Positions 2,953-47,715 of a DNA stretch of 64,000 nt are shown one piece after another. The position numbers were made by a program, and so were the translations under genes. The stretch comes from an uncultured Ruminococcus sp. (GTDB taxonomy: Bacteria > Bacillota > Clostridia > Lachnospirales > Lachnospiraceae). The stretch is from the NCBI GenBank assembly GCA_904418845.1, contig CAJFQC010000015.1:1-64000 (forward strand), given 5' to 3'. Every line of letters starts with the position of its first letter. Position 1 is the first letter of the stretch. The notes beneath the pieces are model-generated. The model was not told where the DNA came from and made no database searches. It was given only the letters and a program-made list of their open reading frames with translations.

Positions 2953-3257
2953 TGTTCTCTCTCCTTTAACAATATTGTATAAAAATACGAAACGCCGCGA
3001 CACCCTGGTCCCCGAATAACAAGGGACCGGATCTCCCGGCGGTACCACCCTAATTAACCTCCTGCGTATGTTTTTCCTGCATATCTGCTGATATACAGGT
3101 GATCCACAGGCTGTTCTCTCTTTTGCTTTTAACGCAAGCCTACGCCGCATTTTCATGTGGATGCTCCCGGGCCGGTTCTATACGCTCCTGCAGGGGCTCT
3201 CACCAGCCGCCCCCTCTCTGTGGCATTCCTTCATATATACTATTCCCGTTCATTGCA
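2953..3257 (-). promoter_or_regulatory. T-box riboswitch, proline-specific (CCG specifier)
   Basis: The proS leader has the hallmarks of a T-box that senses uncharged tRNA. The core AGGGTGGTACCGCC lies at 3051-3038. A stem I region carries AGAGAG and a GGCTGGTGAGAGCC apical part (about 3220-3190). The specifier loop reads GAA-CCG-GCCCGGGAGC, with the proline codon CCG at 3175-3173. After the T-box sequence a GC-rich terminator can form from CCGCCG and CGGCG arms, followed by a U-rich run near 2990-2980. The specifier agrees with the downstream gene. Confidence 0.92.
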
Positions 3258-3263
3258 ATTGTG

Positions 3264-27289: not shown

Positions 27290-27477
27290 TTTCTGGTACA
27301 CCTCCTTATATTATTCGCGTGTACTGCCAAAGTTTTCCGCATTGCAGCGGTATAAAAAACCTCTGTGCCAAAAGACACAGAGGTTTGTAAATTCATACTT
27401 ACGTAATAAATCTAACTTTCCTCGGCAGGCGGGAACACCCTTACGCTTTACAGCGCCTGCTGTCTTCGGCAGTTGCT
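27290..27477 (-). promoter_or_regulatory. L10 leader RNA with attenuator hairpin
   Basis: The rplJ leader carries the L10 leader signature GCCGAAGACAGCAGGCGC, with CCTGCCGAGG as partner strand (region 27420-27474). Downstream, AAACCTCTGTG and CACAGAGGTTT (27357-27386) form a perfect 11-bp stem followed on the minus strand by TTTTTTATA, an intrinsic terminator. Binding of the L10(L12)4 complex controls this operon in Bacillus and E. coli; attenuation at this hairpin is inference. Confidence 0.88.
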
Positions 27478-27482
27478 GATAT

Positions 27483-27511
27483 AGCATATCACAGTATGTT
27501 TTACCTGTCAA
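27483..27511 (-). promoter_or_regulatory. rplJL promoter
   Basis: TTGACA (27511-27506), 17 bp, TATGCT (27488-27483) on the minus strand, with the start near 27476 at the head of the L10 leader. Confidence 0.8.
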
Positions 27512-27673: not shown

Positions 27674-28366
27674 TTACGCGAGTTTCATCGGATTGACCTT
27701 CACGCCTGGACCCATTGTAGATGTAAGAGTCACGCTTTTAAGGAACTGGCCCTTAACCGCTGCCGGTCTCGCCTTGTTAACCGCGTCGATAAGCGTCTGG
27801 AAGTTGTCCGCTAACTGCTCCTCAGTAAAGGATGCTTTACCGATCGGCACATGAATAATATTTGTCTTGTCGAGTCTGTACTCGATCTTACCGGCCTTGA
27901 TGTCGTTGACAGCCTTTGTCACGTCCATAGTAACTGTTCCGGCCTTCGGGTTCGGCATGAGACCCTTCGGTCCAAGAACACGTCCGAGGCGTCCTACAAC
28001 GCCCATCATGTCCGGTGTGGCAACAACTACGTCAAAGTCAAGCCAGCCCTCGTTCTGGATCTTCGGGATCAGCTCGTCTCCGCCTACAAAATCAGCGCCT
28101 GCCGCTTTTGCTTCCTCAGCCTTTGCGTCCTTAGCGAACACAAGGATACGGACTTTCTTACCTGTTCCGTGCGGAAGCACAACCGCACCGCGGATCTGCT
28201 GATCAGCATGACGTCCGTCGCATCCCGTTCTGATGTGAGCCTCGATCGTCTCGTCAAACTTTGCTGTTGCCGCTTTCTTTACTAATGCTACTGCTTCTTC
28301 CTTGTCGTAGAGGTTTCCTCTTTCGATCAGTTTCGCAGCTTCGATATATTTCTTTCCTCGTTTCAT
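27674..28366 (-). CDS. rplA: 50S ribosomal protein L1
   Basis: L1 forms the mobile L1 stalk of 23S rRNA and is a known translational repressor of the L11-L1 operon. The 230-aa product begins [20 protein letters not shown] and has the family segments [20 protein letters not shown] and the [12 protein letters not shown] motif. It is separated from rplK by an unusually long 161-nt spacer, which contains one copy of a putative L1-binding element and a 70-nt direct-repeat unit. Confidence 0.98.
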
Positions 28367-28376
28367 TTTACAATAA

Positions 28377-28414
28377 CCTCCTTGTGGTGTTTGCGGGATC
28401 TTGCCCCTCCCACT
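28377..28414 (-). promoter_or_regulatory. Putative L1-binding element, copy A (before rplA)
   Basis: On the minus strand the element reads GTGGGAGGGGC, a short hairpin, then ACACCACAAGGAGG, so it includes the rplA ribosome binding site. GTGG pairs with CCAC and GGG with CCC around an asymmetric internal loop. It is 32/38 identical to the element before rplK, at the same distance from the start codon. It resembles the L1 site of 23S rRNA (GGUGGGAGGCUU with AAUACCACCC). Confidence 0.7.
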
Positions 28415-28445
28415 TCTGTTTCATAGCTTCTAACAATCAGATCCA

Positions 28446-28527
28446 TCGCCAAATGCTAAGGTACTTCCCTTCGCTAAGCTCGCGGAACGGAATTCGCACT
28501 AGGCTCAAAAAGACCTCGCCAAGTGCT
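28446..28527. repeat. 70-bp direct-repeat unit between rplK and rplA
   Basis: TCGCCAAATGCT (28446-28457) and TCGCCAAGTGCT (28516-28527) are 11/12 identical and 70 bp apart. The second copy abuts the rplK stop codon. Between them are GC-rich, partly self-complementary stretches. It could be a small inserted element or structured spacer; no coding potential is seen. Confidence 0.45.
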
Positions 28528-28953
28528 CTATTCCTCTACAACGACACCCATGGAACGGCATGTTCCGGCCACCATGCTCATCGCCGCCTCAACGCTTGCC
28601 GCGTTAAGATCCGGCATCTTCATCTCAGCAATCTCCTGAAGCTGAGCCTTTGTGATCGTTGCAACCTTATTCTTGTTCGGTACGCCTGATCCGGACTGGA
28701 TCTTGCACGCCTTCTTGATCAGGACTGCAGCCGGCGGTGTCTTTGTGATGAAGCTGAAGCTTCTGTCATTGTATACCGTGATGACAACCGGGATGATCAG
28801 GTCCCCCTGGTCTGCTGTTCTTGCGTTGAACTGCTTTGTAAACTCAACGATGTTTACTCCGTGCTGTCCGAGCGCAGGACCAACCGGCGGCGCCGGAGTT
28901 GCCTTGCCGGCAGGAATCTGTAATTTGATATAACCTTCTACTTTTTTTGCCAT
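28528..28953 (-). CDS. rplK: 50S ribosomal protein L11
   Basis: L11 binds the GTPase-centre rRNA and is needed for stringent-response sensing. The 141-aa product from the ATG at 28953 begins [20 protein letters not shown] and contains [20 protein letters not shown]; a TTG six bases upstream is in frame but less likely. The preceding leader holds copy B of the putative L1-binding element. It follows nusG by 52 nt. Confidence 0.97.
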
Positions 28954-28962
28954 TTTCAATTA

Positions 28963-29000
28963 CCTCCTTGTGGTATTGGCGGGGACACGCCCCTCCCACT
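28963..29000 (-). promoter_or_regulatory. Putative L1-binding element, copy B (before rplK)
   Basis: The minus strand reads GTGGGAGGGGCGTG, then CCCCGCCAATACCACAAGG. The halves GGUGGGAGG and AAUACCAC match the L1-stalk sequence of 23S rRNA as I recall it from E. coli. The ribosome binding site lies in the 3' arm, so bound L1 would block rplK translation. Autoregulation by L1 at this operon is established in E. coli; this site is inferred. Confidence 0.72.
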
Positions 29001-29005
29001 CATCT

Positions 29006-29524
29006 TTAATCCATTTTCTTCACTTCTGAAAAACTAAGCTCGACCGGAGTCTCCCGGCCAAACAGCTCAACATTGATAGACAGGCTCTTCTTCTGCTCGT
29101 TCATGCTCTGCACAGCTCCCACAGTGCCTTCCCACGCGCCGCCCGTGACAACAACCATGTCGCCCACTCCGAAGTTTACGATGATGTTGTCCCTCTTGAT
29201 ACCGAGATTTTCCATCTCGTTCTCCTCAAGCGGCACCGGCTTGGACCCCGGACCTACGAAGCCTGTGACTCCGCGGGTATTTCTGACGACGTACCATGTG
29301 TCGTCATTCATGATCATATGGATCATGACATATCCCGGGAACATCTTGCGCTGTACGGCTTTCTGGACGCCATTCTTAAGTTCCGTCACTTCCTCCATGG
29401 GAACGCGGACCTCAAGGATCTGGTCTTCCAGATGGCGGTTCTCGATCGTCTTATCAATATTCGCCTTCACCTTGTTTTCATACCCTGAATAAGTATGAAC
29501 TACATACCATTTCGCCTCTGACAT
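29006..29524 (-). CDS. nusG: Transcription termination/antitermination factor NusG
   Basis: NusG binds RNA polymerase and modulates pausing and coupling. The 172-aa protein has an NGN domain (WYVVHTYSGYENKVKANIDK, FPGYVMIHMIMNDDTWYVVR) and a C-terminal KOW domain (GDMVVVTGGAWEGTVGAVQS). The ATG at 29524, with AAAGGTGATTTT upstream, gives the family-typical start; the frame remains open to 29545 but begins in the intergenic region. It follows secE by 25 nt. Confidence 0.97.
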   Translation of the reverse strand: MSEAKWYVVHTYSGYENKVKANIDKTIENRHLEDQILEVRVPMEEVTELKNGVQKAVQRKMFPGYVMIHMIMNDDTWYVVRNTRGVTGFVGPGSKPVPLEENEMENLGIKRDNIIVNFGVGDMVVVTGGAWEGTVGAVQSMNEQKKSLSINVELFGRETPVELSFSEVKKMD

Positions 29525-47452: not shown

Positions 47453-47715
47453 TCGTGCAGCCGGGGTGTTAGCGGTACCTTGTACCTGCAATCCGCTATA
47501 GCAGGGGTGATATTGCGCAGAGGGCGGCAGCCGGCAGGGCTGCCCCCGGTAAGTGATGTTGATGTCTGGGTCTCACGCGACGGGAACCTGTGAACCGTGT
47601 CAGGCCGGGAACGGAGCAGCACTAAGCAGGAGCTCCCGGGTGCCGTGAGGGCGCCTGGGCTGAGTTAACTGCCGGGGTAACGCCTGTTGGCCATGCTCGA
47701 AGCGCAATGCACGAA
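47453..47715 (+). ncRNA. ffs: Signal recognition particle RNA, large bacterial type
   Basis: The conserved SRP domain is clear: GTCAGGCCGGGAACGGAGCA, then GCACTAAGCAGG (about 47600-47630), which binds Ffh. The molecule is about 263 nt, long enough for the Alu domain found in Bacillus and Clostridia. The 5' end CGTGCA (47454-47459) pairs with TGCACG (47708-47713) at the 3' end. The exact ends are predicted from the promoter and this closing helix. Confidence 0.95.

What the first reader, a model, noticed from the sequence alone, without database searches (positions are those of the whole stretch)
28377..29000. Two copies of a 23S L1-stalk mimic, before both rplK and rplA
A 38-nt element directly upstream of rplK is repeated (32/38 identical) directly upstream of rplA, at the same distance from the start codon and including each ribosome binding site. 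Both read GTGGGAGGGG, a short hairpin, then A(U/C)ACCAC. They thus copy the GGUGGGAGG / AAUACCAC pairing of the L1 site in 23S rRNA. L1 is a known repressor of the L11-L1 mRNA in E. coli through one site. Separate sites would let L1 control both cistrons independently across the long spacer.
Basis: partly seen in the sequence, partly recalled or inferred. Interest (0 to 1): 0.8.

Follow-up and report, generated by a model that had tools for sequence, protein, structure and literature searches.

The report
Twin L1-protein switches before rplK, rplA
Two short RNA elements that imitate a piece of ribosomal RNA sit in front of two ribosomal-protein genes, very probably so that the L1 protein can shut down its own production; the arrangement is real and well conserved, but two-site control of this kind in these bacteria is already described.

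Summary
On the minus strand of a Mediterraneibacter-like Lachnospiraceae genome, 28970-28999 (before rplK) and 28384-28413 (before rplA) carry the same element: GUGG-GA-GGGG-5-nt loop-(C/U)CCC-7 nt-CCAC, running directly into AAGGAGG. The copies match at 32 of 38 positions; the next best place in the window matches 21. The 23S rRNA of a same-genus genome has the same GUGGGAGG...AUACCAC core.

In the 30 genus loci examined both sites are present wherever testable (rplA 30/30, rplK 29/29). In 120 family and 149 phylum genomes a covariance model gave 143 distinct hits, all just before rplA or at rplK-leader distance.

Additions here: in the phylum the rplA site is the common one, the rplK site patchy. 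Where the rplK-rplA spacer is at most 30 nt, the rplA site was never found and the rplK site usually was (family 14/15 with a loosened finder, 11/15 with the first). In Anaerocolumna the two sites share a 94-nt expanded form, pointing to copying. L1 binding was not tested.

The parts
28970..28999 (-). rplK-proximal L1-site mimic: GUGG/CCAC outer helix, GA and 7-nt internal-loop strands, GGGG/CCCC inner helix, 5-nt loop
   Evidence: R1 cmsearch 49.5 bits, filters off, whole window; best hit outside the two sites 11.0 bits (this sequence is among the 20 used to build R1)
28963..28969 (-). AAGGAGG ribosome binding site of rplK, directly abutting the CCAC arm
28384..28413 (-). rplA-proximal L1-site mimic, same architecture (inner helix GGGG/UCCC)
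   Evidence: R1 cmsearch 45.3 bits (also among the 20 used to build R1)
28377..28383 (-). AAGGAGG ribosome binding site of rplA, directly abutting the CCAC arm
28528..28953 (-). rplK (ribosomal protein L11), ATG start inside the listed TTG ORF 28528-28959
   Evidence: Pfam L11 domains
27674..28366 (-). rplA (ribosomal protein L1, the presumed repressor), 230 aa
   Evidence: Pfam Ribosomal_L1
28367..28527 (-). 161-nt rplK-rplA spacer that holds the rplA site; its 113-nt part outside the site has no other full-length copy in the own genome
27345..27487 (-). L10 leader (RF00557) before rplJ, a separate r-protein leader in the same cluster

Best explanation
Each element is an autoregulatory operator for ribosomal protein L1. 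When L1 exceeds free 23S rRNA it binds the GUGGGAG/AxACCAC internal-loop motif in the mRNA as it would bind the L1 stalk of 23S rRNA. The bound structure ends at the base next to AAGGAGG, so it covers the ribosome binding site and blocks initiation. With one site before each gene, L1 can repress rplK and rplA separately, so repression need not rely on translational coupling across the 161-nt spacer. Shown here: the elements, their conservation, genomic location, the match to 23S and the placement against the ribosome binding site; the paired structure is supported mainly for the inner helix. Inferred: L1 binding, repression, and independence of the two sites.
For: 32/38 match against 21/38 for the next best place in the window. 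Genus: rplA site in 30/30 loci and rplK site in 29/29 with enough upstream DNA, while loop and spacer (53-271 nt) vary. In 68 distinct sequences 99.6% of cells pair, with double-sided changes in 3 of 4 inner-helix pairs, 9 cells in all (the alignment was fitted to the structure). Model search over genomes: 100 family hits in 64 of 120 genomes and 43 further phylum hits in 40 genomes; 90 of these 143 end within 40 nt before rplA and 53 lie 430-950 nt before it, the rplK leader by distance; none elsewhere. A same-genus 23S carries GGTGGGAGG...ATACCACC. Review PMC10931766, section 3.1, describes this mechanism and two-site layout.
Against: No binding or expression data. Single-sequence folding does not favour the structure (z -1.01 for the rplA copy, -0.44 for the rplK copy). 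The minimum-energy fold of the rplA copy is different, and that of the rplK copy forms the outer helix but another inner helix, GGCG/CGCC. In one search the outer helix hardly varies, the number of further pair types is not above shuffles (150 of 500 reach it), and sliding the 3' partners by -3 or -2 gives a higher covariation score, though fewer paired cells. At E<=0.05 the model finds a site in only 64/120 family and 41/149 phylum genomes. Those searches scored only 61 (family) or 49 (phylum) of the several hundred or more first-look candidates per listed genome, so 'none elsewhere' is not exhaustive; they also did not report the 23S site itself.
Confidence: 0.92

Rival explanations
1. Only one of the sites is the working operator (the rplA site, the common one in the phylum); the rplK site is weaker, accessory or a relic.
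For: In the phylum sample the rplA site is found in 120 of 133 testable loci and the rplK site in 38 of 142. In the phylum set the rplK site sits further from the start codon (median 25 nt, against 18 nt for rplA).
Against: In the genus the rplK site is intact in 29 of 29 testable loci despite variable loops. In family loci with a spacer of at most 30 nt the rplK site is the only one found (14/15, rplA site 0/15).
Confidence: 0.15
2. The two copies are alike because of recent duplication or gene conversion, not because of separate selection for L1 binding.
For: In L115 (Anaerocolumna sedimenticola) the two sites share a 94-nt expanded form, 77 identities over 93 aligned positions. In the family set (48 genomes) same-genome copies are more alike than copies from different genomes (0.749 vs 0.690; none of 5000 GC-blocked permutations as high; the named set, 43 loci, likewise 0.717 vs 0.660).
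Against: In the window's genus same-genome copies are no more alike than cross-genome copies (0.797 vs 0.796, permutation p 0.43). Against the nearest relative the family excess vanishes (0.749 vs 0.732, p 0.95), and each site resembles its own counterpart there more (rplK 0.771, rplA 0.785); in the named set the excess is modest (0.717 vs 0.678, p 0.018). Copying would also be compatible with L1 control.
Confidence: 0.08
3. The element is a strong-initiation or mRNA-stability feature (SD context, hairpin) without L1 control.
For: It abuts the SD in both copies.
Against: All 143 distinct model hits lie before rplA or at rplK-leader distance, none elsewhere; the core equals the 23S L1 site.
Confidence: 0.03

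Closest known systems
Dual L1-binding sites before rplK and rplA in Firmicutes (Fu et al. 2013, doi 10.1093/nar/gkt055, as cited in PMC10931766)
   Same: One site before each gene, an irregular stem-loop with internal bulge, mimicry of the 23S L1 site
   Different: No categorical difference seen. Whether this genus was in their alignments could not be checked; the paper is not held.
E. coli L11 operon L1 operator
   Same: L1-binding 23S mimic in the rplK leader
   Different: The review places the proteobacterial site before rplK only; a cited title names translational coupling. Here there is a second site and a 161-nt spacer.
Thermus thermophilus / Thermotoga maritima two-site rplK-rplA operons
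   Same: A uL1 site before each gene
   Different: Thermophiles. The review suggests that two sites serve life at high temperature, which would not explain two sites in Lachnospiraceae (not known to me as thermophiles; recalled).
L10 leader (RF00557)
   Same: r-protein leader in the same gene cluster
   Different: Different RNA family and, by family name, a different repressor

Membership tests
L1 autoregulatory mRNA site | Core sequence and internal-loop strands equal to the 23S L1 site (GUGGGAG ... AxACCAC) | tested here: met
   (both copies) against 23S of L366
L1 autoregulatory mRNA site | Irregular stem-loop with two helices around an internal loop, conserved | tested here: met
   support comes from the inner helix. 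Single-sequence MFE does not show the proposed fold in full for either copy
L1 autoregulatory mRNA site | Located before rplK and/or rplA | tested here: met
L1 autoregulatory mRNA site | Overlaps or abuts the translation initiation region | tested here: met
   CCAC runs directly into AAGGAGG in 29/29 rplK and 30/30 rplA sites of the genus
L1 autoregulatory mRNA site | Bound by L1, less tightly than 23S rRNA | not testable with these tools
   needs gel shift
L1 autoregulatory mRNA site | L1-dependent translational repression in vivo | not testable with these tools
   needs reporters
Any Rfam 15 family | Match at or above gathering score, or any weak match on the two sites | tested here: not met
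   No hit on either site at gathering; at E<=10 the four hits in 28300-29060 all lie off the two sites

The most novel reading that the evidence does not exclude
Number and place of L1 operators follow operon geometry: lineages with a tight, translationally coupled rplK-rplA junction keep only the rplK site, lineages with a long junction rely on an rplA site and keep or lose the rplK site, and in some lineages the two operators are homogenised by copying from one to the other. The window's genus would be a fixed two-operator state.
Probability: 0.38. Interest if true: 0.4.

Novelty: already known. Interest (0 to 1): 0.22.

Why it matters
It confirms, in a large bacterial family, that L1 feedback control is often built from two operators, and suggests a simple testable rule linking operator number to whether neighbouring genes are close enough for coupled translation. 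Rfam 15 matched neither site here, so the model made here could seed a family for it.

Tried and rejected
Rejected: chance repeat; a dispersed repeat in the spacer (its 113-nt part outside the site matches only itself plus two short pieces of 19 and 28 bases at E 0.13 and 0.44 in the own genome); recent gene conversion as the cause of likeness in this genus; a wider L1 regulon (no listed hit outside the rplK/rplA leaders, within the limits of a search that scored only part of its first-look candidates).

Led nowhere: MAFFT alignment of elements of unequal length put gaps at the ends and broke the register, so R1 was built from 20 equal-length elements. A tree-based test of the spacer/site link had no power: on a tree of rplK DNA from 109 family loci only 2 independent pairs rest on supported branches, so the Fisher values are not corrected for relatedness. 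Single-sequence folding was not informative. Literature: one search listed 13 papers, none, one search listed 20 of 69, one. I opened only the review PMC10931766 (passages, section 3.1 whole); the other listed papers were seen as listings only.

Known weaknesses: the second site finder was loosened after looking at loci that the first had missed. The short-spacer result for rplK depends on it: 14 of 15 family loci with the second finder, 11 of 15 with the first (L344, L345, L354 and L358 missed), against 59 of 94 and, worked out from the tallies, 55 of 94 for longer spacers. Shuffled leaders scored 4 of 3525 with the first finder and 0 of 3525 with the second. Cutting all loci into tiles gave 328 of 19024 with the first finder, but those tiles include real sites. 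Of the 10 family loci called 'neither', by eye 7 show both arms and 3 only the 3' arm within the 95 nt examined (print-out); all stay misses in the counts. Genus: 30 of the 36 loci with a match were examined, the best by L1 score. Family: 110 loci out of 113 genomes with a match (120 searched); three with only fragments (G085, G103, G133) were left out. Phylum: 144 loci from 143 genomes with a match (149 searched); two extra fragments or weak matches were left out. In one search the window's own two hits were left out of the phylum count because they are in the family count. The genome-contig scan kept the best 80 of 589 relatives.

Full report
WHAT IS THERE. The gene order on the minus strand is nusG (29545-29006 as listed) - rplK (28953-28528) - 161-nt spacer - rplA (28366-27674) - L10 leader (27487-27345) - rplJ - rplL (proteins confirmed by Pfam). 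Directly before rplK and directly before rplA lies the same 30-nt element followed without a gap by AAGGAGG. rplK site: GUGGGAGGGGCGUGUCCCCGCCAAUACCAC. rplA site: GUGGGAGGGGCAAGAUCCCGCAAACACCAC. Both fit one layout: GUGG, GA, GGGG, a 5-nt loop, (C/U)CCC, a 7-nt strand ending in A, CCAC. The 38-mers match at 32 positions; the best other place in the window matches 21. CCAC-to-start distance is 16 nt for rplK and 17 nt for rplA.

WHOSE GENOME. The nearest named record kept in a scan with the rplA protein is an uncultured Mediterraneibacter (98% identity, L089); most other records listed are labelled Lachnospiraceae or genera that I place there from recall. The window's own assembly gave no 23S match, so the 23S comparison uses a single-contig genome of the same genus (G028, L366). 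Its L1 region reads GGTGGGAGGCTTTGAAGTGGTTACGCCAGTAGCCATGGAGCCGCTGTTGGGATACCACC, which shares GUGGGAGG and AUACCAC with the mRNA elements.

CONSERVATION. In 30 genus loci (the best 30 of 36 with an L1 match among 41 genomes) the rplA site is present in 30 of 30 and the rplK site in 29 of 29 with enough upstream sequence; one locus is cut short. The loop, the 7-nt strand and the spacer (53-271 nt) vary, while GUGGGAGGG, ACCAC and AAGGAGG do not. A covariance model from 20 genus elements (R1) applied to 58 family and phylum loci gave 76 matches at E<=1. On the 68 distinct rows 99.6% of cells pair, three of the four inner-helix pairs have double-sided changes (9 cells), and the outer helix is almost invariant. 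Against the structure: further pair types are no more than in shuffles (150 of 500 reach the value), and sliding the partners by -3 or -2 gives higher covariation scores with fewer paired cells. The alignment was fitted to the structure, so the pairing percentage leans towards it. Folded alone, neither copy gives the full proposed structure: the rplK copy forms the outer helix with another inner helix, the rplA copy folds otherwise.

SPECIFICITY. The second model (R2) was run over genomes at E<=0.05. Family: 64 of 120 genomes match. Phylum: 41 of 149 match. Of the 100 family hits, 54 end within 40 nt before rplA and 46 lie 430-950 nt before it. Of the 43 phylum hits outside the window's genome the numbers are 36 and 7. 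None lies elsewhere. The second class is the rplK leader by distance; it was not checked hit by hit against the rplK start. These searches scored only part of the first-look candidates in each genome, so a rare site elsewhere could be missed, and they did not report the 23S site itself. The low genome counts most likely reflect a 28-position model searched in megabases with strict filters.

DISTRIBUTION, ANCHORED AT THE GENES. With the leaders cut out at each gene start and scanned by a structure-aware finder (first version, loosened version), the loosened version gives: family, 110 loci: both sites 53, rplA only 26, rplK only 20, neither 10, one locus with neither an rplA site nor a testable rplK leader. 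Phylum, 144 loci: rplA site in 120 of 133 testable, rplK site in 38 of 142 testable, both in 29. The first version gives for the family: both 48, rplA only 23, rplK only 18, neither 20, one not testable for rplK. So in the phylum the rplA site is the common one, the rplK site comes and goes, and the window's genus has both.

SPACER RULE. In family loci with an rplK-rplA spacer of at most 30 nt, the rplA site is found in 0 of 15 and the rplK site in 14 of 15; with longer spacers the rplA site is in 79 of 94 and the rplK site in 59 of 94 (Fisher p 1.5e-10 and 0.019). With the first finder the short-spacer rplK count is 11 of 15, so that part of the result depends on the loosened finder. The phylum set has two short-spacer loci (rplK 2/2, rplA 0/2; longer spacers rplK 33/130, rplA 120/131; p 0.069 and 0.009). 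The named set has five (rplA 0/5; rplK 3/3 testable, against 50/73 with longer spacers, p 0.55); it may share species with the family set. The rplA result is partly forced, since a short spacer leaves no room. The rplK result is not forced, but its p-values are weak and ignore relatedness, and a tree-based test had too few supported pairs to decide. The pattern fits a simple idea: when the genes are close enough for coupled translation one operator before rplK suffices, and a long junction needs an operator before rplA.

ARE THE TWO COPIES RECENT DUPLICATES? In the window's genus there is no sign of it: same-genome rplK/rplA identity 0.797, cross-genome 0.796 (permutation p 0.43). Across genera of the family same-genome copies are more alike (0.749 vs 0.690; none of 5000 GC-blocked permutations reaches it), but compared with the nearest relative by L11 the excess disappears (0.732, p 0.95), and each site resembles its counterpart there more (0.771 and 0.785). 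In the named set the excess is modest (0.717 vs 0.678, p 0.018). One clear case of copying exists: Anaerocolumna sedimenticola (L115), whose two sites share a 94-nt expanded form with 77 identities over 93 aligned positions; its two model matches are weak (25.3 bits each, E 0.14). So the likeness in the window most simply reflects the same constraint (L1 motif plus SD) acting twice.

MECHANISM. Given the equality with the 23S L1 site, the location before rplK and rplA, and the abutting SD, L1 feedback repression of each gene is by far the best reading. Binding, repression and independence of the two sites are inferred, not shown.

WHAT IS KNOWN. Review PMC10931766, section 3.1 (read whole; passages of other sections): L1 represses rplK-rplA translation through mRNA sites that resemble the 23S site; sites lie before rplK (Proteobacteria), before rplA (Actinobacteria, Cyanobacteria) or before both (e.g. 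Firmicutes, citing Fu et al. 2013); T. thermophilus and T. maritima also have both. Fu et al. 2013 is not held; I recall from its abstract, not seen here, that dual L1 sites in many Firmicutes were confirmed biochemically. Rfam release 15 gave no match on either element. The finding is thus a good, correct reading of a known arrangement; the spacer rule and the Anaerocolumna case are modest additions whose novelty I could not check against the primary paper.

Noticed in passing
L115 1837-1930 and 2392-2485: Anaerocolumna sedimenticola carries two 94-nt expanded L1-site-like elements with a shared insert (77 identities over 93 aligned positions), suggesting copying between the two leaders.
   Followed up: partly
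window 27345-27487 (-): L10 leader (RF00557) before rplJ, so the rplK-rplA-rplJ stretch holds three r-protein leader elements within about 1.7 kb.
   Followed up: no
window 3019-3262 (-): T-box leader, RF00230.
   Followed up: no
window 47453-47714 (+): Bacterial large SRP RNA, RF01854.
   Followed up: no
G018 (same genus), contig C1: 23S matches come in many pieces with different model ranges, for example 1815030-1817677 and 2065138-2066352, which may mean intervening sequences, masked stretches or fragmented rRNA genes.
   Followed up: no
window 28367-28527 and the same spacer in L002-L030: The rplK-rplA spacer varies between 53 and 271 nt among close relatives, although the L1 site at its end is fixed.
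   Followed up: partly
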